From assembly GCA_021432605.1 (NCBI GenBank), contig MU271164.1, positions 124,001 to 188,000 on the forward strand: DNA of 64,000 bases. Reading direction: 5' to 3'. The notes beneath the pieces were generated by a model. That model was not told the DNA's origin and searched no databases. It saw nothing but the letters and a program-made list of their open reading frames with translations. Origin of the DNA: Coniochaeta sp. PMI_546. Its lineage: Eukaryota > Ascomycota > Sordariomycetes > Coniochaetales > Coniochaetaceae. Positions 3,493-40,322 of the stretch are shown here, piece after piece. Each line of letters opens with the position of its first letter. The stretch's first letter is position 1. The position numbers were made by a program, and so were the translations under genes.

Positions 3493-4806
3493 ATGATGCA
3501 GATATGGAACTGAGTTATTTCAATAGTCGAGAGCACGAGAGATAACCCATGATACGGGTAGAGTGGAACATGTAGCCAGGGGAAACGAAGAACATCCGGC
3601 CCAGAAATCCTCTGGTTGAACTGATTGAGGGCAACATAATTAATACAGCGTTCACTTACTGTTGTGTGTCTGCGAAAAGGTCATGCTTCAAGCTGTCGTT
3701 ACTGTCTCGGTGATCTTACGACATATTTCCTTTCGACGTTGATGCACAAGAAGGGGAGTGTGAGGTGTGGACAAGAGAAGGATAAAGGGGATGTTTTCGA
3801 GGGGAGAAATCTTGTCAGTCATGTCAGGTTTCCATACGGCACATGGTATCACGCGACGTGCGAAGAAAGACGCGAGGTAGTGATTTCCCTCGAATGCGGC
3901 GAGGTAATACCTTCTATTTACTTGCCCGGGATGTATTCGAAGGACACTTCCACGTGAGGAAGACACGGCCCAGAGGCAACCTTCTTCAATTGGGAAGCAA
4001 CGGCTACGTGAGTTGACCTACATTCATATCTTCATCACAATTATGGTCAAGCCTTGTGCTTCACATCATAATTTTCAGGTTGCCTCCATTGTACGAAACT
4101 GGGCAGTACAGGTACCGATGTGCCACATACCGTTTAGTGATTGCTCACCTGAGAACTATGCGACTAAAGCACTCCTGCCTGCAGAAGCTGGCATTTTGTC
4201 CGTTATGAGCTACATTCTAATTTCTCGATCAATTGATGATGATGAATAGAATATTGTCGAAGATCAGGCCCTTCGGCGGTTGCATCGCCAGCCACCATCT
4301 ATCCCGTCTGTCTTAAGCATTTGTAGAAACGGTATTGGGTGACTTGCGATGGTGGCCTATTTAGACCAAGGTACTTGTGGTTGTTGTCTAAATCACTTTA
4401 CGCCCCTCGTTATACTGTGTCCAAGCGTCCACATCATCCCGCGCCATCCCTTAAAGTTGATGTGGAGTGATGCAGGGTGGTTGAGGAAGTCGAATTTGAA
4501 TTCAAGTGTACCAAGTCAACATCATGGATGCAAGGCGACGTTGGAGGTTAAGACGAAAAGCTTAACGAGTTCGCTGTATCAACGGCGTGGGTCAAGCGCC
4601 CCATCAGGATGCTACGGTAAGCTTTGCAGTAGTTTCTGGGGCTCCTGCCACAGTCTGTATCGTTAGCGACTAGCTCGGCGTGTCTATGCGCCGAACCCTG
4701 CAAACTTGGCCTTGGCTGAACCTTTTAAGACGGATGGTGAGCGTCGTTGTGAGTAACAGACCTTTAGCTCAAATCTTTCGTAGTTCTTCAATAAGAAACA
4801 GGGAAA
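3493..4806. other. Intergenic, no gene supported
   Basis: No open frame here has a recognisable domain or splice pattern. The right end is the promoter and 5' leader of the HET gene that starts at 4807. Confidence 0.5.
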
Positions 4807-6858
4807 ATGTCGTCGGGAGACCCCAACTGCGGTCTGTGCCGAGCGCAGTTCCAGGAGCGCTGGTCGTCTCTACCCGAAGTGAAAAGCCACGCCGAGGATG
4901 GCTGCCCCTACTGCGCCAACATGTTGGAGGGCCTACTTTACCTAATACCGGACCTCGAGGCCAGGTTCGGACATGATGCGAGTTTCCGCTTCCAGAATCG
5001 CCGCGACATGACCGTGTACGCGGACCCAAACGGCTCACTCCGGCACACGTCGCGGAACGAGCCCATGAAGCTCCACTACAGGTGGTTTATGGTCGATCAA
5101 CCGCAGCCGTACGAGCCACTGGGCAACACTGCTTCAGAACCGAGTTTCGAGAAAGCACAGCATTGGATTCAGGAGTGTCTGGCAAACCACAAGCTCTGTG
5201 GCAAGGACGAACCTTCTCCACTTCCAACCCGGATCCTCGACCTTGGTGAGGCGACGCAAGACGAAGAAGGGGGCGGTGAGCCAGAAATTCGACTAGTCGA
5301 GTCATCATCGGGCCAGAGCGAGCGGTACATCTCGCTATCTCACAGCTGGGGAGGGGAGCAGCCACTGACCACGACGAGGGCCACTCTCGACCAACACAAA
5401 GCCGGCATCCCGCTAGGCAGCCTTCCTGCGACCTTCCAGGACGCATTCCACGTCGCACGACGGCTAGGAATCCGGTATCTCTGGATTGACTCCCTATGCA
5501 TCATCCAGGACAGCCCGGAGGACTGGCAGCGTGAAGCCAGCCGCATGGCGAGCATCTACCGCAACTCCTGGCTGACCGTCTACGCCACCGCTTCATCCTC
5601 TCCGAGCAGCGGCATCTTCCGCGACAACCAGGCCGTCTGGATCCAGGCCGACGACCCGGAGGACGAAACACTAGACATCCTGTTCCCCGAGGCGGCCAAG
5701 CTCCGCCAAAACCTCCGGCTGTCCCTCCGCTTCGCGACCGTCCATCCCGACTTCAGCCCATACGCGGAGCCCGAGCGGCAGCAGCAGGCGCTCCCCCTGC
5801 TGAGCCGCGCGTGGGCGTACCAGGAGCGCCTCCTGGCCCCGCGGGTGCTGCACTTCGGGCCCCAGGAGGTCTTCTGGGAGTGCATGCAGGACCTGGACTG
5901 CGAGTGCGGCGGGATGAAGTGGCGGGCGCAGCACATGGGCAGCTACGCCAACCGCGACACGGCCGGCGAGCTGCCGCCCAAGATCTCGCACTACGCCGCC
6001 CTGCACGTGGGCAATGCCCAGGGGAGCAAGATCAAGGAGGCCAAGCGCAGGGGGAAACTGCTGTCGCGCTGGGAGGAGATGGTCGAGGAGTACACGCGGC
6101 GGTCGCTGACTTTCTCGTCCGACCGCCTGCCGGCATTCTCTGGTGTGGCGGAGGAGATGGTGGCGGCGCTGGGGATGCGGTATCGCGCCGGACAGTGGGA
6201 GGAGACTCTGCCGGTGGGACTGCTGTACGAGAGAGGTAACTGCACTAGCCAGGCGCGGCTTGCTGTGGATGACCCGCGCTCGGCGCCGTCGTGGTCTTGG
6301 GCGTCGGTCGATGCCCCCGTGCGCTTCCTGATCCATTTGGCTGGCCCGCCGGAGTGGGCCACACCCACAGTTCACGCACAGGTCCTGGAGCTCTGTTGTG
6401 TCCCATCTGGGACAGATGAGCGGGGTCGTGTGGATATGAAGGAGTCTTACATTATGCTCTCTGCAGAGCTAGTGGAGGCGTCTTTGTGCTTCGAGCCCGA
6501 CCCGCATGCAACGCCGTACAGGCCCTGGATGTATATTAGGGCGGCAGCCTCTAGGGGCGTCAAGGGCCCACCTCTCAAACAACTTGGAAAGCGTTCGTTC
6601 ATGGTCCGCGTCGGCAAGACTGAACCCTTGGCGTTCGTTCCTGACGTGCGGCTCTGCGACGAGAACGGCGACTGGCTGTGGAAGGGAGACGAACCGGTCT
6701 ACTGTGCCAAGATCATGGAGTCGCAGGAGTGCTTCTACTGGCTTGTTCTCAGGAGGAGTGCGCTGGAGAGCACAGCTTACGAACGGATCGGTGTTGTTGA
6801 ACACCCGGATGCCAACTGGGAGTCGAAAGACGAGAAGACAACCATCAAGCTCCTTTGA
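4807..6858 (+). CDS. HET-domain protein (heterokaryon incompatibility type), 683 aa
   Basis: Single-exon gene starting at ATG 4807. The HET domain begins near residue 174 with YISLSHSWGG. It continues with the conserved blocks LPATFQDAF (207-215), YLWIDSLCIIQD (224-235), ASRMASIYRNS (244-254) and VYATASS (258-264). The matching C-terminal block is SRAWAYQERLLAPRVLHF. The N-terminus has two CxxC pairs (CGLC at 8-11, CPYC at 33-36), often seen in fungal HET proteins and possibly metal-binding. Known HET proteins trigger cell death after fusion of genetically unlike hyphae; whether this one does is inference. A second HET gene lies at 10.9-12.7 kb, of a different subtype, so the two are not a recent duplication. 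Confidence 0.92.
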   Translation: MSSGDPNCGLCRAQFQERWSSLPEVKSHAEDGCPYCANMLEGLLYLIPDLEARFGHDASFRFQNRRDMTVYADPNGSLRHTSRNEPMKLHYRWFMVDQPQPYEPLGNTASEPSFEKAQHWIQECLANHKLCGKDEPSPLPTRILDLGEATQDEEGGGEPEIRLVESSSGQSERYISLSHSWGGEQPLTTTRATLDQHKAGIPLGSLPATFQDAFHVARRLGIRYLWIDSLCIIQDSPEDWQREASRMASIYRNSWLTVYATASSSPSSGIFRDNQAVWIQADDPEDETLDILFPEAAKLRQNLRLSLRFATVHPDFSPYAEPERQQQALPLLSRAWAYQERLLAPRVLHFGPQEVFWECMQDLDCECGGMKWRAQHMGSYANRDTAGELPPKISHYAALHVGNAQGSKIKEAKRRGKLLSRWEEMVEEYTRRSLTFSSDRLPAFSGVAEEMVAALGMRYRAGQWEETLPVGLLYERGNCTSQARLAVDDPRSAPSWSWASVDAPVRFLIHLAGPPEWATPTVHAQVLELCCVPSGTDERGRVDMKESYIMLSAELVEASLCFEPDPHATPYRPWMYIRAAASRGVKGPPLKQLGKRSFMVRVGKTEPLAFVPDVRLCDENGDWLWKGDEPVYCAKIMESQECFYWLVLRRSALESTAYERIGVVEHPDANWESKDEKTTIKLL

Positions 6859-10852: not shown

Positions 10853-12661
10853 CTAGAATGTCGGGCGTGGAACCAGCCGCCTCTGAAGACCTGTATTGCT
10901 GGACAACGTCCTCGACGCAGTGAGGACGGGCTCATGTGACTTGGGCGCCTCCTTATTGGCACATTGTGCACAGCTCTCAACCTTGGTACCTGCAATGTGA
11001 ACCTTGACGTCGACCACATAGACCTCTTCCCCCATCAGGGAGGTCTTCTCTAGACTCCCGGCGATGCTGTAGCTGCCGCCGATGGACATGGTGAAGCGAC
11101 AGCTGTCATCCGTCGAATCCCACTCCGTACTAGCCTGCCGTCCACGGCTGCTCAGGCTGACAGGGTGATCCTCATCCTCCTGCTCGATCGGGGCCGGCTC
11201 AGCCGTCAGCGGAGCAGCCCGGTCCGGGATCGGCGACGTGACGGACGCGCGGTAGAAGGCCTTGTCCCTGGCGTAGACGGAGACCGCGAACTCGAAGCCT
11301 TCCACGTTCCGGTACCCGGCGAAGCACTCCTGGTTGATGTAGTCGTTGACCCGCAGGTGCGTCATGCGCGTGTTCCACCACTCGGGCGGCGAGCAGCACG
11401 TCGCGCTGAACATGACGTCGACCGAGTCGAGGTGGTTCTCGAGCTTGAACAGGCATTGCCGGGACGGATACGCCCGCTGGAGTCTCTGGAAGGGGTCCCA
11501 GGCAAACAGGACTTCCTTCGGCGACGGGAGTTTCTCCGCGGGGACCGAGTCCAGCCGCCGGCCGTTCACGCCGATGATGTGGTTGTTGTCCTTGTCGTCG
11601 CTGTCGGACGGCTTCCGGACTTCCAAGGCGAGACAGTCGGCGAAGTTTGTCTCCCGCCTGCACCCCAGTGCGGCGTACATCCTGCCGTTCTCCGGATTCC
11701 GATAGATGGGCAGCGTGATGCTCAGGCCTGAGTTGGTCAAGGTGTACGGGTTGCCGCTGCCGGGAGACTTCCAGCGCACGACGTCGTAGCACAGCGTGAA
11801 GTGTCTCGGGGACGGTGCGAGCAGGGGCGGAGACTTGGCGCCGTAGTTCCACGCGAATACCGACTGGTCGTCGGAGGACTTGATGATCTCTTGCTGGAGC
11901 CGTTTGAAAGCGCCCTCGCCCTCTCCGTAGAGAAGCGGCATGTTGATGTTGAACAATCCGAGCAGGGCGTAGGCAATGTCCTCGACCCGCGTTGCGGTCC
12001 GGCGCGCAGCCCATGACATCCGCCTCGCCACACAACAATGCTTCGGCTCGTTCATGCCGAGGAGCACAGCGGTGTCTATATGCGTTATGGTGTGGATGAC
12101 GCTGGCCAGATTGCCACGCGTGCCGAGAAAGGTCCAGTTCTCGGCGAAGAAGAAGACATCGGGGGGAGCAAGTAGCTCCTGCAGCGTCCAGCTGCGACTC
12201 CACCACCCGCTCTTCGCAAAGGCGGTCTTGCCGATCTGGCGGTCATGCTCAAAGGTCCGGCTGCTGCGGTGGCCTAGTTCGTCGAGAAACGGCCGCTCAG
12301 AGTCGTCCGGCACGTCAGAGAGATATGCGTAACAGGTGTCCGCGTCCTGGTACCAGGAGTACATGGAGTTGATGGACTCGGTGAGCTCGGCGCTGCTCAC
12401 CTTGTTGATGCAGCAGGTGTCGACCCAGGTATAATCAAAGCCATCGGCGAGGGCCTGTCTGCAGGCAAAGTCGATCTTGCGATATCCTTCCTTGCCCTCG
12501 AATATATCGGGCGGTCCGTTCTCCCCGTTGATGTCATTGAATGTCACCTCCTCGTCGCCCCATCGGTGCGAGAGGATACTGTACTTGGGGATATCATTGC
12601 CGTGATATTCTTCCAGCTGCCGCGTGCGCACATTCAGGAGGCGCATGTCTAGCGAGTGCAA
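10853..12661 (-). CDS. HET-domain protein of the HET-E/HET-D N-terminal type, 602 aa
   Basis: Single exon, ATG at 12661. The HET domain starts almost at the N-terminus: MRLLNVRTRQLEEY, then YSILSHRWGDEEVTF (residues 27-41), the block YTWVDTCCINK (77-87) and the SINSMYSWYQDADTCYAYL block (96-114). WWSRSWTLQELLAP follows. This arrangement is typical of the HET domains found in HET-E and HET-D like proteins, but there is no NACHT/NTPase or WD-repeat region. The second half (for example VRWKSPGSGNPYTLTNSGLS) resembles the uncharacterised region that usually follows in this subfamily. Its predicted role is incompatibility or programmed cell death signalling. It is convergent with the Fig1-like gene; their stop codons are about 66 bases apart. 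Confidence 0.92.
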   Translation of the reverse strand: MHSLDMRLLNVRTRQLEEYHGNDIPKYSILSHRWGDEEVTFNDINGENGPPDIFEGKEGYRKIDFACRQALADGFDYTWVDTCCINKVSSAELTESINSMYSWYQDADTCYAYLSDVPDDSERPFLDELGHRSSRTFEHDRQIGKTAFAKSGWWSRSWTLQELLAPPDVFFFAENWTFLGTRGNLASVIHTITHIDTAVLLGMNEPKHCCVARRMSWAARRTATRVEDIAYALLGLFNINMPLLYGEGEGAFKRLQQEIIKSSDDQSVFAWNYGAKSPPLLAPSPRHFTLCYDVVRWKSPGSGNPYTLTNSGLSITLPIYRNPENGRMYAALGCRRETNFADCLALEVRKPSDSDDKDNNHIIGVNGRRLDSVPAEKLPSPKEVLFAWDPFQRLQRAYPSRQCLFKLENHLDSVDVMFSATCCSPPEWWNTRMTHLRVNDYINQECFAGYRNVEGFEFAVSVYARDKAFYRASVTSPIPDRAAPLTAEPAPIEQEDEDHPVSLSSRGRQASTEWDSTDDSCRFTMSIGGSYSIAGSLEKTSLMGEEVYVVDVKVHIAGTKVESCAQCANKEAPKSHEPVLTASRTLSSNTGLQRRLVPRPTF

Positions 12662-14820
12662 TATACTGTTTGATGACTATACGTAACTCTGGAATGCGGC
12701 ACCCGAAAAGTCTAGACCCGGAGGCTGAATGCGGAGCTTGCGAAACACGGAGGGAAGAAAATCGGGAAATACAAAGCGGAGGTCAGGCGGAAGTTCCAGG
12801 TTCTAATTGTTTGGTTAATTGCCGTATCTAGGTACCTTGAGCCGTCAAGGCTGCCATTGATTTGATGACAGATGACCAATCTCTCGGTCGAGCTAGTAAT
12901 TCTAGTCTAGTAGCTCTCTGCGGCCGTCATGTCGGCTTGACACTACCCTTTGGAAGCATGACTGCATATTCATCGTAAACGAGCCCAATCGGCTGCGTGC
13001 CTTGAGTTCATCGCGCGCAAAGGAGACAAGACTCTGCCTTGTCGGACCCCTCGAACTGATAGCCTTCCGGGGTCTTCTCTCGCGTTTGTCGTGATTATAC
13101 TATTTATGGTACTTGCCGTCGGTTAGGTAAGCCGCTTTGTGATTCTAAAGGTGAATAGATATCAGGAAGCCTTAAGGAAGAGGCTAGGTGGTTCAAATGA
13201 TAACCGAATGTCTTATCGCAGGCTTCCATGTCATCGCAGTTGTTTAATATTGAAAAGATAAGTTGAGAGGAACCGAAAGACCGGGGGATTGGAGACTCCC
13301 TGTCCTCCATATTTGAGCTGCGGGGCGGTTGAGGAGAGCTCTGTGGAAGTTATTACAGGTCCCCCTTGCCAGCAGGTACCTCGAATGTGATGTTCCAGGT
13401 TTGATTGAGTGGCTGACATTCTTTTGCCGGTTCCTGCCCTTTTTTGCATTGCGTCTTATTTTCTGAGCCAGGTGTCATGGGTGTGCGCGGTCCCGTCGGG
13501 TCGCAGGCTGCCTTAGGTAAGTGCAGGCGGGGTAGATGGGATGATGCTCGGACCAAGTGGTCCTGCATTAGGTAGAGAGGTACCTGTAGGTACTGCACGT
13601 TGAACGTTTTATTGTCGCGAGACAGGCGTGCATCAACTGACAGTCTGCCCTTGGAACTCAAGGAGACTACACTACACTGTCGCCTCGTCCCCATTGGCAT
13701 TCCCACGCCAGGCTCTGGACCACTCTTCAGAGCCCATTTGAATCAGCAGCACGAGCCATCAATGACGTGCTTGGTCTGGAGAGACTGGCATGGAGCCAGA
13801 TTAACGAACGGATGTTGCCGCTCAGAGAGACGGGAGTCACAACAGCCTGTTAGCAAGGATCTGCACAAGGTCCAGAACCTGGGGATCGAGCTTGACCTAC
13901 CACAATAGTGTTAGGTGAGCACGCGCGCGTTGCGTGCAAAGACATTCCATTCCGGCGGTACATGGAAGACGCCTGCACAACCTTATCTGAGCTACTAGCG
14001 GCTTAGGGTCTCGGTACTGGTGGCTGCTTAATTGTTAGCGCCTACGCCTAGAGATCTAGTCCTGGCATTACTGTATAATCAAGGACTCCTTGTCGTTACT
14101 CCATGCGTGTACCTGAGAAAGTTCGGTGTAACCTGCGCTAATATAACTCATTTTACTTACTAGACTCTAGCATGTCTCCTTTGACTTTGCTTCTCCTCAT
14201 GCTGCACCAGACTCGTAGATGCCATAACAAGATCACGAAATAACAAGAGGGTCGGTATCAAGGCGTAGGACATTCAAATTCCGCCTCAGCAAAAACAAAG
14301 AGCCTGGTCAATGAGAATGCATTTCAATTCCTTCGAAACTGCCCTGAACAAGTGTTCGCTCTGTGGATGACGTCGCTTTATAACAGCTTGGGCCAATGTG
14401 TGAAGCTATGCCAAGCGGCGGCATTCCTGCACAGAGATGCGGCTGTCATGAAACATGGCTTCACCATTTCTTGTGAAATTTCAGAACGAGACAACCTGGA
14501 AGATCTAATCTCTGCGGGCCTGAGATTCAGGTCGGAGTCGAGACTGGTTGTGAGTGGCTGCAGCTGGCAGGTCATCCTCGGAATGGGAGCAGCGATCTCT
14601 TCTGACTAACATAACATGTGGTCGCGGACCGGGAGCAGCTGTTTGTGATTTGCTGTCCATCCTCCCCCTGAGTTCGGGAGGAGTGGTGATTGCCCCCCAT
14701 CATAATGCTAAATACTTCTCTCGAGCCTGTTACGAGCGTCTGTGGATGTAAGTCCAGCATATCAGCTCAGGGGTAAGTCAACAAACGGGTACCGATTCGG
14801 GGCCGTCGCCATTCACCAAC
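12662..14820. other. Intergenic, no gene supported
   Basis: This 2.1-kb gap contains several frames of 60-117 codons on both strands, none with a recognisable domain or splice-consistent extension. It should contain divergent promoters for the HET gene to the left and the surface-protein gene to the right. Confidence 0.5.
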
Positions 14821-30779: not shown

Positions 30780-31852
30780 TCAAACAGACATCTTCATCGC
30801 AATGGCCTTGTGCGGATCATACCCCTTGATGATGAAATCCTCCAGCTTCCACCCGTCAATACCGCCGCCCTTCTCCCTCGCAATCTCCAGATCCGGGAAC
30901 GCCCTCGGCTCCCGCTCGAGCTGCGTCTTGAGCGCATCAACGTGGTCGAGGTACACATGCGCATCGCCCATGACGTGCGTCAGGCTGCCGGGCACAAGAT
31001 CGCACACATGGGCCAGCATGTGCGTCAGGAGCGCGTAGCTGGCGATATTGAACGGTACCCCCAGGCCCATGTCGCACGACCGCTGGTACAGCTGGCAGTG
31101 GAGGTGGCCTTTCGGTTTCTCCTCTGTACCATTGCTCTCGCCATTCTGCTGCTGCTGCCCGTTGGGTTTGTTGTGTGACCTCGGGTAGCTCACGTAGAAC
31201 TGTGCAAACATATGACACGGCGGGAGCACCATCTTGCCCAGATCCGCCGGATTCCACGCGCTCAGTATGAGCCGTCTATCGAACGGATTCGTCTTGAGCT
31301 TGTGTATTATGTGTTCCAGCTGATCGACCCCCTTGCCGGTGTAATCGGTCTTCGCATCGACATACTCGGCGCCGAAGTGCCGCCACTGGAAGCCGTAGAC
31401 GGGTCCCAAGTCGCCGACTTCGCGGTGGGTCAGACCGAGATTGTCGAGGAACTCGCGTGACCCGTTACCGTCCCAGATCTTGACGCCGACGTCGGAGAGT
31501 GGGAGGGAGGATGTCTCGCCTTTGATGAACCAGAGGAGCTCGAGGATGATGGCCCGGGTGAAGACGCGTTTGGTGGTGAGGAGGGGGAGGACCGGTTGGC
31601 CGGAGGTGTTGTGGAGAGAGAATTTTAGAGGACGGGGGGCGAAGATTGAGTAGGTGCCTGTGCCGGTCCTGTAGAGTTGTTATATCAGCATGCCACGATC
31701 CTGTATAGTGTTGCTTCCGCGAAGTATAAAACGCACCTGTCCGGACGATGTTCGCCGTTCTCGAGAATCTCGCGGACGAGGTCGAGATACTGGTACTCCT
31801 CGTGCCTGGAGGCAGGAATCTGAGCTTCTGTTGCGTCCTGCAGGGCTGCCAT
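30780..31852 (-). CDS. Thymidylate synthase, 334 aa
   Basis: Makes dTMP from dUMP using methylene-tetrahydrofolate, in the nucleus or cytosol. Exons are 31852-31737 and 31668-30780 (donor GTGCGT, acceptor CTACAG, phase 2). The N-terminal exon gives [16 protein letters not shown], followed by [17 protein letters not shown]. The active-site Cys is in [10 protein letters not shown], about residue 190. The dUMP-binding blocks [17 protein letters not shown] and [10 protein letters not shown] are intact. A Gln/Asn-rich insertion ([16 protein letters not shown]) lies just before the QRSCD block, where other fungal enzymes also carry a variable loop. It is a housekeeping gene with no sign of damage. 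Confidence 0.97.
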
Positions 31853-32266: not shown

Positions 32267-34486
32267 CTATGGCAAACTCAAGAACAACCTCAACAGCCTC
32301 GGGTATATGGGTGACCCAAGGCCGGTGACCGGATCCCAACCTTTGTGAACCGCAAACCCATTACTCCCACAGCCGGGATTGGACCCAGTCGTTATATCGG
32401 TAAACACCTCCGGATGATCATACTACACACACATTGTCAGCTCAGTCCGTCACATATCGCAAGCGGACAAGGTCACCTACCAAGACCTGATGCACAAAAC
32501 CAACAGTCCCTTTCCCTCTGGCCAACCTCTCCTCATTAATCAGCGTCAGTATGCTCGCCCAGATAGGCACAGCAACCGATGTTCCACCCAGATGATCCGA
32601 GAACCCCTGCATATGGACCAGGTAGTTATCACCGAGAGCTGCAACGTCTGGATATCCCCGTCCGGCTTTGTTGAACAGCTTGCCCGGCTCGACGCCGACG
32701 TGACTGAAGTTATTGCCGCCGCCAACGTACCCTAGATGCGACACGTTTGCACGGAAGAGGTAGTTGTCCACGTGTCGTCGCTGCCAGATCGGTGTGGGAA
32801 AGACGTTGGAGAAGCCTCCTCCGGAGGCGAAGTACGTAGGTGCTACTTCCTTGTACTTGCCCGGTCCGCGACAAGTGTCGTTTACCAGGACTGTTGCGCC
32901 TACGCTCAGGACGTATGGGCAGTTGGACATTGTCCGGGGAGAGAAGATGTCTCTGTTTGGACCGAGACAGCCAGCCTTGGGGTCGTTCCTCTTACCGCCC
33001 ACCCCGTGGTCGCCGGAGGACTCGACTACTGTCACCCCTTGCAGCACGAGCTTGAGGATCTCCAGGCACTGGCGCTGCATGTATGAGTACGGCAGCACAG
33101 ACTCCACGCCGCTGTAGCTGATTGCGATGACGTTCGTGGGCTCGTACACGCCGCACATCAGTTGGCCCTGGTAGCCACTGTCCGCGTTCGGGTTGGGGTA
33201 TTCCGGGTCCCGGCACTGGTCGCGCTTGCAGTCGCCCGTCTCGCCGAACGCGTGCAGGCGGCAGTAACTGCCGTCTATCGCGTCAAAGAAGGTGTTGAAG
33301 AACCCCGTGTACTTGGTCGTCGCCTTCTGCTGGTCAAGCTGGTACCACTCGTCGTCCGTCTGCCACAGCACCGTGCGCTGCGGATGGATCAGCGGTATGG
33401 CCACTTCGAAGTCGAGGTCTGCCTCCTCGCCCGCCGCCATCTGGTTCGTGGTCGGGCCCTCGGCGCCGTTGATGGAGCGCAGCTCCGGGTGTGTGCCGTT
33501 TGGTATCCACGGCGCCACGTTGGAGAAGTAGGTGTCCAGGTCGCGCTGGTTGTAGTGCTGACTCAGAGACTGGAAGATGCCGAGCTCGTTACCCCGTGCG
33601 GCTCTGGTTCCGTTCGGGATCTGGTACTGGGCTCTGACGCACGCTGGTGTGGTGCTTGCTGTGCAGGACCCTGGGTTGCGGAGCATGGCTATGTCGTCTG
33701 CGTCGTCTGTTTCGACGTGCGCGATGTCATATTCGTAGTTCTGTCTTTTCCTCCTTCTTCTCCTTGCAAGTTCCATTCGTTTGTCGTCGTATCCCGCATT
33801 CATCAGTTTGATGCCGGGGGTTATGTAGTCGATGTGGTGACGGATCTGCCGCGGAACGTGGTACTCGGTACATGCGATATTGCGGATGCCGGACTCGTCG
33901 TGCTCATAGACGTGGTAGCTGGTGTGGAGGATCCGTTCTGCGTCTGCTACCGTGGCGTCGAATTGTATCCATTGTTTGTTGGCAGACTGCGATATTTTCT
34001 TTGCTGGAACGCCCTCACTAATGAGCCAATCTCTCACTGCGTCTACAGACTCTTTTGCTGGCGCAAAGAAGTCGATTACTTCCTCGGAGGTCATGTGCTT
34101 GCCGTAGTTCGGCGATGTGAGATTCGATCTGGCAGTCATCACCTTCAGCTACGGAAAACGTATACATAACTCGGTTGGATCACAAAGGGTGCTCACATGT
34201 TCATCAGAACTTCATGCCCCAAGTCCACGTTTGACTGTCTGAGCCCTATCCTCATGGGCAAAATCGCGACTGGGACTGCCCTCTCTGCTCTCGTCCATCC
34301 CTCGATATGCCGCGGCTCGTGGCTTTCGTGGACGACATGGGATAGCGGTATGTGCCGCCTTGGTGGTCGGCCTGAGCCATCGGTGTCGCGTGCCGCATGG
34401 CCCTGCAGCAGCGTTCTTGACGACGCGACACCAGCTTCAACTGTGCAAGCGCCGAGCGTGGCGATGGCGAGCACGAGGAGACGCAT
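32267..34486 (-). CDS. Sedolisin (S53) tripeptidyl-peptidase-type protease, 697 aa
   Basis: Secreted acid serine protease. Exons are 34486-34197, 34128-32481 and 32422-32267. The second junction uses the acceptor GCCAG, giving LMNISNLTSPNYGKH, the conserved pro-domain block; nearer acceptors give stops. The signal peptide is MRLLVLAIATLGACTVEA. The pro-domain runs to about residue 215 and ends in a basic run (ARRRRRKRQ) that is a likely Kex2-type processing site. Catalytic residues are Glu332 and Asp336 in GEEADLDFE, the oxyanion Asp470 in SSGDHGV and Ser614 in LGGTSVAVP. The last exon carries DITTGSNPGC and GWDPVTGLGSP, which include the calcium-site region. All key residues are present. Confidence 0.93.
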
Positions 34487-35525: not shown

Positions 35526-38500
35526 TCAGCCCACATCCACCCGCTCCTCTTCACCTCTATTGTTCTGTATAATCGCTCTCAAATCAGTCGAAACTCCTTG
35601 TATGCGGCCATCTCGAAGCTGCACAACAACATCCTGTCCAGGCCGCGCATGTTCCGTAAGCACGCCCAGCCGATGAGCAATAACTATCACAGTGTGCCCA
35701 TTGTCAGTGAATTCTTGATCGATGATGTTGTGAATCGCCGCCTCAGTGGCCGAATCTAGAGAGGAGGTGACCTCATCCAGGAGGATGATCGGCTTTACAC
35801 CCTCGGTCCGCAGCCAGTGCACCTTGACTAGTGCCCGACATAGCGCGAATAACTGACCCTGTCCGACAGAGAGCTCGGAGGAGGAGGAGACCTTCTGGTC
35901 TAGAACAAGATGATCTCGATAACCGGTTTCCATGATTGTGTCGTCATCCGATCCCGGGCCGGTACCCATGGCACCTCGTTTTGTAAAGTGGTCAAAGAGC
36001 CGGGTCTTCTGTAGAGCTTCAATAATGACTTCGTCCGATACGAGAGTATCGGGATCCATGTTGAACCGCAGTGTCTCATTTGATAGTATCAGTGCGTCTT
36101 GAGACACGGTGACGAGACATCGCCGTCGTATTGTTTGTCGCGGGACTCGACTAATGTCTATGCCGTCGATTTTGATTATCCCGCACTGAAGCTCAAGCAT
36201 GCGCAATAGCGTCAGTATGATTGAGCTCTTGCCGCTGCTTATTGTCAGCATGGCACTGTCACACAAAAAGTCTTGCGGTCTCTGAAGTGGGTGTCTTTCA
36301 ACATACCTGCCAGTGCGACCGAAGAGGATGACTCTCTGCCCAGGGACAATGGTCAAGTTGATGTCTCTCAACGCCGGTGTACCGGGGCTTACAGGGGGTC
36401 AGCAAGTGCAACCTAGTCCAGACAATGTGGGCATGAGATAGAATGTCGAAACGTACTTATAGGCTGCAGTAACGCCCCTGAACTCGACAAGTCCCCCGGA
36501 CGGCCAGAATCTCGGAGGCTCATCGTTCTCGTTAGGTCTATCTTCCGGCAGGACGCTAGCCTCGAGCATTTTCAACCTTGAGATGGCACCCAGTGATACC
36601 TCGAGGGTTGTCCATGCTTGCACGAGCTTCAGCAGCGTGCTGTTCACCACGAGCATGATGTTGAGAGCCACTCCTATTTGACCTCCACTAACCTGCCCAT
36701 GCAACGTGACCGCCAGGACAATGACCCCTGTCGCGAGGGCAGCTGCTACCAGGTCGAGAACGATATTGAGCCATCTCTGCAGGGATAAGAGAAGATACTC
36801 CGGCCGTTGGGCGTTCTCCAGGCGATCAATATTCTCCTGTGTAATTGCTTGGGTCCAGCCAAAGGCGCGGATTGTTTCCAAGCCTTCAACCGATTCCAGG
36901 AAATTAGAAAACACCGCCGCCCTAGACTCCAGCTCAATGAACCGAAGTTGCCGCGAAGTACGGAGGTAGACTCTCTGAATCACGTACAGCACAGTCATGC
37001 ATCCTGGCAGGGACAGCGCAAGGTATCTCTGCGCCATGAACAGCAGAGCAGCTTGCATGATGAGCTTGAACGTCTGAACTTCCACATTGTTCAGCGCTAC
37101 GGGCAGCTGCTTGTCAATGAGCTGCATGTCCTGGCTGAACCTGTTCAGAATTGACCCGTTCTCCGTATTCGAGAAGTAAGACAGCGAAGCTTCGGTGATG
37201 ACATCAAGGAGTTTCTGGTGTAACTTCATTCCCGACTGGGGAGCGACTCGGATGAGGACAGCCCACATTGTCCCACTAGTGCACGACCAAGCGATGAGAG
37301 ACATGATCATGTAGCCAGCTGTATAGAATGCAGTGCTGCCGGCACCGGATTCTGTCCATGCAGCCAGCCACAGCTGTGGGATAGTGATGAAGAATGAGGT
37401 GATCGAGGTGCCTGCAAGGACGAGTAGCATATTGGACCCCCCGATGAATCGGAAGTAGTAGCCGTAGAGCGAAAAGTCCCCTGTCTTTCTGGCTAGGTCG
37501 ACCTCGGCCTCGTCCTTCGCACGAAGTTGGGCTTGGACCTTGTCGAGATTGACTGACTGCGGTGTGTCGTGCTTGTTTTCGATACCATCCACGGGGATGA
37601 ACTTCGATATCGCTGACAATTTTGCCTCAAGTGACTCCCAAGGGCCCTGCTCTACGACACGAGATTTGCCGATGATCACTATGTGGTCGGCAGCCGAGAA
37701 GTGCTGGACCGAATTGGTAACAAGCACCACAGTTGACTTCAGCTTCCGCAAGATTCCGTCTTTCCCGAATAAGTTGGCGAAGACTTGGTCCTCTGTCTTT
37801 CCGTCCAGAGCGCTGAACGTATCATCAAGCAAGGCAAGTTCGGGTCGACTGAAAACAGCACGCGCGAGCGCCACCCGCTGTCTCTGCCCTCCAGATAAGT
37901 TGAGTCCTCTACTGCCGATCTGCGTGTTGTCACCCTCTGGAAGAGATCTAAAGTCGTGGGTAAGACAACATGCCTCCACTACCACACGATACCACTGTTC
38001 GTCGTAGCAGTTGGTATAGCCATGTATTATGTCCTTGATGCTACCGTTGGGGAGCCTTGACCTCTGCGCGCAGTAGGCAACTCGTTTCGTGGAGAGGTTC
38101 ACCGACCCCTGGATAGGGGTCATTTCGCCGAGGATGGAGCGTAGCAGGCTTGATTTGCCGCACCCGACTGGACCGGACGTTTATGTTGATATCCTCCAGG
38201 AGCGGCACCTTGTCGCCGATGGTCAAGCTGTTGATAGCGATGGCCGGGACAGGTTGGCGAGATGCAGGGCCGGAAGCTGCACCATTGCTGCCAAGTGTTG
38301 GTATATTACCTCGAAGATCATGCAAGGACGGCCGTAGCAGGAAATTCTGGATCCTGGTGAAGCCTGCAAATGCCGCGACTCCTCTGGGCACGATCGTCAT
38401 CACCATATTCGCAGGATGCGTAACCATGCCCAAGATGGCAACGGTGGTGAACGCCGTCTCCGTGTCAAAGGGGCGAACAGTGGCAGCTGCAATGACTGCG

Positions 38501-40322
38501 TACAGGACCAGGGTGAGTGCTGGTGCGAATATGCCGAGGGCATTTGCTATGGTCGCGTCAGTAATGCTCAGTGCTTGGAGACCCAATGTGGCCTAGGATA
38601 CGGACCGCTGGCGTTGTACCACAGCATCATCCATCTGACCTTGCTGGCAGCTGAAAGCTCGGCCCTTCGAAGCATCTGTATTCCATCGGAAAGTCGGTGC
38701 TGGAAACCAAGCATCTTGACGACCTTCATGTGGGCAAGCATGTTACTCGTGGCTGCCACCCGACTCTGAGTGGCAGTGTTCCACGCTTTTTGTCGTGACT
38801 GAAGATGCTTGGCCACGTATCGGCTCATGTGGGAACAAACTAACATCATAGTCAGTACTCGAGTGGGAGCACCCGGACGCGTATAGGCCACCTACAGTAG
38901 ATGAGGACCGGAGGCAAGGGCCAGATCCACCCCACCTCCCGAGCTAGCAGGAAGATACCGATGACAACCTCGAGACACTGAGCCCAAGTCTCATGAAACA
39001 TCTCAGCTACTCCTTCAAGGCCTTCTGCATCTGTGCCCATTAGTGTGGTGGCTTCGCCATCGTCATATGCTATGCTTGGGGAGTGGATCGTCTTGTCATG
39101 GATAAGGCCGACGAGGGCGCTCTTCGTCATCAGGGTCAAGCGATTCAACGTTTGCTGATACACGGCTGTGGATATCTATGAGCTTGGAGGTTAACGAACC
39201 GCAACAATCTTCAGCGTAAAGGTGCGTACCGCAAGACCGAGGTATATCACCACAGCTGACACGATGAGCCAATAGCCTCGCATGGTAACTGCACTCTCAG
39301 AAGGCATGGAGACAAATCTGATAGAGTGTTTGATGAGCAGTGGCTGCGAATAGCGGAAGGCTGTTAAGAATAGTCGAGGAACGATAGCCGCGAGAAAGGA
39401 CTTCCGAATACATCTCAGCAGCGCCAAGGGCAACGTCCATTCCGTCTCCGGTTTTGCTGTCATCGCTGTGAGATTAAGAGAACCTCTGCTCGGTAAGAAT
39501 CCATACCTCGTTGATTCCATGTACCCAATATCGTCTCTCTTGTGCGTTCCGGCCGCATGTCGCTCCTCAGCGGCGGCAAGTCTTCAAGGGTAAGAATCCT
39601 CTTGTAGCCCTTGAGCAATATTGGGTTGATCCAGGTGAAGAATACTCTGCTAAGCACACCATTCGACTCTTCGGGAGACTTCCCCGTAGTGCCATTGCGC
39701 TGCACAGAGCGCTTGCTACTCGTGTCAGAAACCAGAAGTGCTGTATTTATCGACAGCCGAACGACGACGGGAATGGCGGTGCGTGTACTTGTGTACGCCC
39801 GCGCTGGCATTGTCAGGAGCGCCAAATCGCACCCAACAAAGGCAAGGAGATACAAAACTGCGAGATCTGAAGGTCTGGCGGATTGGCCTTGCTCTAGGAA
39901 GCAAAGAATACCCAGGCCGAGGGCTGCCACCATAGAGGCTGAGACCGACATGACATCGAAGATGTCAGCCCGGGACGACCTATCACGGACATTGACCAAA
40001 CATGCCAGCAGGAAGACAGACAGCAGTACCGCAATGCTCTATCGTGGTGGTCAAGTTAGAACCTCTCAGCAGTCTTCGAGCCGAACAATATACGAACCGC
40101 TCTGAGTATCCCTATCCAGCTTGAGGTCGACTGCGCGCGAAGTGTGCGGAGCTGCCAAAGCCGAACAGGTAGGCACAACAGAAACACCGCTGCAGTGACT
40201 GTAGAAAGCAGTTGGAAGGCGTGCTTTGGCTCTAGGTCCAAGATAACATCGCTGCCATCAAGAACCTCCTGCTGGTATTGATAGTGCGCTGGAGGTGCTA
40301 GCCCCAATCTGTAGACCATCAT
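35526..40322 (-). CDS. ABC-C (MRP-type) transporter, frame broken at the first Walker A
   Basis: Full-length ABC exporter family with two membrane domains and two nucleotide-binding domains (NBDs). Exons: 40322-40098, 40038-39507, 39465-39230, 39175-38896, 38839-38606, 38546-36457, 36387-36307, 36234-35526. All seven junctions are GT-AG. NBD1 has LNLSGGQRQRV and LLDDTFSALD. NBD2 has GRTGSGKSS (split by an intron), LSVGQGQ and ILLDEVTSSLD. In the large exon the frame ending LLEDININVR runs out of register at about 38176; the GPVGCGKSS Walker A resumes in another frame about 8-9 residues early. The exon is 2 bases short modulo three, which matches a deletion of about 26 bases. Translation would terminate soon after. 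It is either a recent pseudogene or a sequence error; the rest of the gene is intact. Confidence 0.85.

What the first reader, a model, noticed from the sequence alone, without database searches (positions are those of the whole stretch)
38150..38200. ABC-C transporter loses frame just before the NBD1 Walker A
Seen directly: the frame carrying LLEDININVR and the frame carrying GPVGCGKSS are out of register, and the usual 8-9 residue segment between them is absent. The exon length modulo three fits a net deletion of about 26 bases. All other exons, splice sites and the second NBD are intact, so if real the mutation is recent. Loss of an exporter could be strain-specific or under selection.
Basis: partly seen in the sequence, partly recalled or inferred. 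Interest (0 to 1): 0.7.

Follow-up and report, generated by a model that had tools for sequence, protein, structure and literature searches.

The report
Broken fungal ABC-C transporter gene
A fungal gene for a membrane pump of the ABC-C family has lost about 26 bases just before its first ATP-binding motif, which breaks the reading frame; it is most likely a recently broken gene of a common kind, unless the assembly is wrong at that spot.

Summary
On the minus strand (40322..35526) lies an eight-exon ABC-C transporter gene. The frame carrying LLEDININV (to 38176) and the frame carrying GPVGCGKSS (from 38174) are separated by one base. All 14 ABC-C paralogues fetched from the same genome keep the segment between them, 16 residues long in the common register; here there are seven codons plus one base, a net loss of 26 bases that removes the strand leading into the P-loop and brings a stop at 38043-38041. 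A frame-change scan of 15 ABC-C regions also gave -26 here. No consensus-like intron restores the frame and keeps Walker A. Both sides of the gene are otherwise open, given a gene model with two off-consensus donors. Lack of further lesions bounds neutral decay to about 0.4-0.8% substitutions per site, so the loss is recent or the sequence is wrong. No reads, isolates or orthologue could be consulted; I favour a real, recent loss. Putative pseudogenes are already reported in this fungal subfamily. Interest is low.

The parts
35526..40322 (-). ABC-C transporter gene, eight exons, frame broken in exon 6
   Evidence: exon/intron reading; Pfam ABC_membrane and ABC_tran; the 60 PDB rows shown are ABCC proteins
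38176..40322 (-). upstream open piece, exons 1 to 5 plus the start of exon 6: N-terminal region, TMD1 and start of NBD1 (623 aa), ends ...LLEDININV
38174..38178 (-). break: last upstream-frame codon 38178-38176, single base 38175, Walker A glycine codon starts at 38174; net loss of 26 bases against paralogues
38041..38043 (-). premature stop codon reached by the upstream frame
35526..38174 (-). downstream open piece, 835 aa when spliced: NBD1 from Walker A on, TMD2, NBD2
38151..38174 (-). Walker A of NBD1, GPVGCGKS
36388..36456 (-). intron 6, GTACGT...AAG, 69 nt
36235..36306 (-). intron 7 inside the NBD2 Walker A, GTATGT...CAG, 72 nt; spliced reading GRTGSGKSS
38547..38605 (-). intron 5, donor GTCCGT (off-consensus at +3), 59 nt; same place as in paralogue L038
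40039..40097 (-). intron 1, donor GTTCGT (off-consensus at +3), 59 nt; same place as in paralogue L038
38156..38207 (.). imperfect 9-nt inverted repeat (8 of 9 paired), arms 38156-38164 and 38199-38207, flanking the break; may be chance

Best explanation
A full-length fungal ABC-C exporter gene has been inactivated recently by a short deletion (net 26 bases) in exon 6. The deletion removes the beta strand before the NBD1 P-loop and shifts the frame. The transcript would meet a stop as the 45th codon after the break and probably be degraded; at best it would give a stub with the first transmembrane domain and no ATP-binding domain. Shown: the two frames, the missing length, the stop, the absence of a rescuing consensus-like intron, the open remainder. 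Inferred: that the deletion is real in the organism, that it is recent, that the transcript is degraded, and that no functional transporter is made.
For: Frames and stop. 14 of 14 fetched paralogues keep the segment. Net -26 in a separate scan. Of 131 loose GT-AG pairs of the right phase, 40-400 nt long, six have a consensus-like donor and acceptor; all six start at 38163, inside Walker A, and take out its lysine (the other 125 were not looked at one by one). A scan with a branch-site requirement lists no intron between 38519 and 36988. No direct repeat longer than 8 nt in 38080-38280, so repeat collapse by an assembler is not suggested. No N in the window and one copy. No further stop in 4377 coding bases; under neutral decay this gives d below 0.0083, 0.0055 or 0.0041 at 95% for assumed indel ratios of 0.05, 0.10, 0.15. 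Putative pseudogenes are reported in fungal ABC-C group V (PMC2848647, passages seen), and about 300 of more than 1300 ABC gene models in mycorrhiza-forming fungi are fragments or putative pseudogenes (PMC4692070, passages seen).
Against: No reads, second assembly, transcript or orthologue was seen, so an assembly error is open, and an otherwise open gene is also what an error would look like. A second ABC-C gene of the assembly has a net -1 frame break, which fits some indel error rate. The age bound rests on my gene model, in which two donors are off-consensus; if those are defects the bound loosens. In a tree built on columns of the window gene, and so biased toward it, the window branch (0.218) is shorter than its sister L038 (0.673), no sign of relaxed selection.
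Confidence: 0.72

Rival explanations
1. Assembly or sequencing error: the organism's gene is whole and the assembly dropped bases at this spot.
For: The rest of the gene is open. Another ABC-C gene in the same assembly (L032, contig C5) shows a net -1 frame break in NBD1 with no intron at the place (5 of 41 queries that hit the region; DNA seen), which would fit an assembly with some indel errors.
Against: A loss of 26 bases is not a typical base-call indel; no homopolymer longer than three lies at the site and no direct repeat above 8 nt lies near it. 13 of 15 ABC-C regions show no supported small frame break, though the scan sees only places that an alignment bridges, so it can miss breaks.
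Confidence: 0.24
2. The gene still works by an unusual route: an unrecognised splice, a ribosomal frameshift, or two separate polypeptides.
For: The two pieces stay open over 623 and 835 residues.
Against: None of these routes brings back the missing strand before the P-loop (inference); the six consensus-like rescuing introns cut out the Walker A lysine; the downstream piece would lack a proper start to NBD1.
Confidence: 0.04

Closest known systems
Fungal ABC-C transporters, probably the Pezizomycotina-expanded group V of 'Phylogenetic analysis of fungal ABC transporters' (PMC2848647)
   Same: Full-length ABC-C order of domains, many paralogues in one genome, putative pseudogenes already reported in the group
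   Different: This gene is broken before the NBD1 Walker A; placement in group V is inferred, no reference sequence of the group was compared
Human MRP1 (ABCC1), ABCC2 and yeast Ycf1 (solved structures; species names recalled)
   Same: Downstream piece matches at 3.4e-80 (8vt4, MRP1), 7.9e-80 (8jx7, ABCC2) and 7.6e-69 (7mpe, Ycf1)
   Different: Those are whole; this one lacks the strand before the P-loop and its frame
Nearest paralogue L038 (G000:C14:291000-298500)
   Same: 50.4% identical over 791 of 835 columns of the downstream piece; introns at agreeing places by eye
   Different: Keeps the segment before Walker A

Membership tests
ABC-C (MRP) transporter | two ABC transmembrane regions and two ABC ATP-binding domains in the order TMD1-NBD1-TMD2-NBD2 | tested here: met
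   ABC_membrane in the upstream piece (33.3 bits, cut-off 28) and in the downstream piece (95.8 bits); ABC_tran 64.3 and, in the last frame read with intron 7 unspliced, 47.1 bits
ABC-C (MRP) transporter | closest solved relatives are ABCC proteins | tested here: met
   the 60 rows shown of 457 matches are ABCC members, MRP1 first; that Ycf1, CFTR and SUR1 count as ABCC is recalled
ABC-C (MRP) transporter | N-terminal TMD0 (many, not all members) | tested here: inconclusive
   TMD0_ABC 20.1 bits, E 0.00076, below the 27-bit cut-off
ABC-C (MRP) transporter | complete NBD1 in one frame | tested here: not met
   membership therefore holds for the lineage of the gene, not for a working protein
pseudogene | disabling lesion against intact homologues | tested here: met
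   net -26, stop at 38043-38041
pseudogene | no consensus-like splice that restores the reading | tested here: met
   six strict candidates of 131 loose ones, all six starting inside Walker A; the 125 others not examined singly
pseudogene | lesion present in the organism's DNA by independent reads | not testable with these tools
   no reads or second assembly held
pseudogene | no functional transcript or protein | not testable with these tools
   no expression data held
fungal ABC-C group V | clusters with reference members of that group in a tree | not tested
   only paralogues of the same genome were put in a tree

The most novel reading that the evidence does not exclude
The 26-base loss is a recent, segregating null allele of an ABC-C exporter that differs between isolates and was favoured by selection, possibly together with the second frame break in the ABC-C gene on contig C5.
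Probability: 0.06. Interest if true: 0.4.

Novelty: new member of a known kind. Interest (0 to 1): 0.12.

Why it matters
It is a clean example of a single short deletion in an expanded transporter family, useful for annotation: an automatic gene caller may hide the break with a false intron or split the gene. By itself it changes no picture of ABC-C transport or of fungal gene loss.

Tried and rejected
Rescue by splicing: 131 loose and 6 consensus-like introns of the right phase were listed; the 6 take out part of Walker A; the other 125 were not examined singly. Older decay: no other stop in the two pieces under my gene model. In the scan of 15 ABC-C regions a net +2 call at window intron 5 (1 of 36 queries) and a net -11 call in L032 (1 of 41 queries) were set aside, the first because it falls inside an intron, the second as a single alignment that I did not check further. 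The other printed calls of that scan were net +38 to +77, intron-sized; four calls were not printed. A second copy or haplotype in the assembly: none found. An orthologue among prokaryote genome records (stray fungal contigs): two Brenneria loci at 26% and 25% identity, not orthologues. The viral, phage and plasmid collections were not searched, and no scan of the metagenome collection was allowed. Paralogue L038 looked at first like a second pseudogene because of stops; the stops appear to fall in introns (judged by eye). The 14 paralogue regions were picked by eye from the 63 matches, one of which is the window gene; other ABC matches, among them C2:1344815-1347403, were not fetched. Species identity was not settled: the rRNA search failed twice for machine reasons.

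One paper search with five terms gave no paper; three others gave listings, from which I saw passages of two papers and no other text beyond listings. The off-consensus donors may be a mild second defect; not settled.

Full report
What is there. The window lies at 124001-188000 of contig C22 in a 33.5-Mb assembly of 24 contigs. HET-domain genes and an RFC3-like gene and introns of 50 to 72 nt fit a filamentous ascomycete; that is an inference and the species was not identified. On the minus strand, 40322..35526, an ABC-C gene can be read in eight exons and seven introns. Splice sites were chosen by me so that the frame is kept; their places agree by eye with the nearest paralogue. The upstream piece carries an ABC transmembrane region and a TMD0 match below the cut-off; the downstream pieces carry NBD1 from Walker A on, the second transmembrane region, and NBD2. 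The best solved relatives of the downstream piece are MRP1 and ABCC2; Ycf1 follows.

The break. The frame with LLEDININV ends at 38176, one base follows, and GPVGCGKSS starts at 38174 in another frame. In 14 ABC-C regions fetched from the same genome the stretch before Walker A is present in 14; at a fixed spacing of 16 residues 13 of 14 have L, V or I at the anchoring position, L032 has G, and L040 could also be read with 15. Here there are seven codons and one base, so 26 bases are missing. A separate scan, in which open frames of the other ABC-C regions were aligned to each region and changes of frame were measured, gave net -26 at this place with both queries that bridged it, of 36 that hit the region.

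Can the cell get round it. Among GT-AG pairs of 40-400 nt and the right phase that bridge the break, 131 are loose and six have a consensus-like donor and acceptor; all six begin at 38163 inside Walker A and would delete its lysine. A branch-site scan lists no intron between 38519 and 36988. Read as it stands, the upstream frame reaches a stop at 38043-38041 after 44 further codons. A ribosomal frameshift could not return the strand before the P-loop, which every fetched paralogue keeps.

How old. No other stop was found in 4377 coding bases under the gene model. With assumed indel-to-substitution ratios of 0.05, 0.10 and 0.15 (85% of indels frame-shifting, 28 splice bases), neutral decay beyond d = 0.0083, 0.0055 and 0.0041 would have left a further lesion with 95% probability. 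So either the loss is recent or it is not real. Against full confidence: donors of introns 1 and 5 read GTTCGT and GTCCGT, where the nearest paralogue has GTATGT and GTAAGT. Both give the right frame and both introns have a CTAAC or CTGAC branch-like site, but a mild defect is possible and would loosen the bound.

Allele or error. For a real deletion: 26 bases rather than one, no direct repeat above 8 nt near by, no N in the window, one copy. For an error: the rest of the gene is open, and one more ABC-C gene of this assembly, on contig C5 (L032), has a net -1 frame break in NBD1 (5 of 41 queries; DNA). Two of 15 regions scanned thus hold a supported small break; a break that no alignment bridged would have been missed. 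Without reads or an orthologue (one search found none among prokaryote records) I put 0.72 on a real recent loss and 0.24 on an error; these odds are judgement, not computed.

Setting. PMC2848647 (passages seen) describes an ABC-C group V with two to thirteen members per species in Pezizomycotina and U. maydis; some of those of A. oryzae are putative pseudogenes, and at least four of seven in A. [quoted passage not shown] PMC4692070 (passages seen) counts about 300 fragments or putative pseudogenes among more than 1300 ABC models in mycorrhiza-forming fungi. A broken member of a large ABC-C set is therefore ordinary. The Pfam hits on the 20 reading frames of the window that I scanned for context include no polyketide synthase or peptide synthetase; shorter frames were mostly not scanned.

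Verdict. Observation confirmed, interpretation partly supported, interest low.

Noticed in passing
L032, G000:C5 about 344535-344553 (minus strand): A second ABC-C gene of the same genome has a net -1 frame break in NBD1, after the Walker B region, with no intron at the place: another recent pseudogene or an assembly indel.
   Followed up: partly
window 40097-40039 and 38605-38547, minus strand: Introns 1 and 5 of the ABC-C gene have donors GTTCGT and GTCCGT; each has a GTAT four bases downstream that would put the frame out.
   Followed up: partly
window 38156-38207: An imperfect 9-nt inverted repeat flanks the break with 34 nt between the arms; it could have helped a deletion or be chance.
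   Followed up: no
window 4795-6858 (+) and 10853-12676 (-): Two HET-domain (heterokaryon incompatibility) genes in one window.
   Followed up: no
window 30780-31679 (-) and 32442-34148 (-): Thymidylate synthase in one open frame of 299 aa beside a protein with a pro-kumamolisin activation domain.
   Followed up: no
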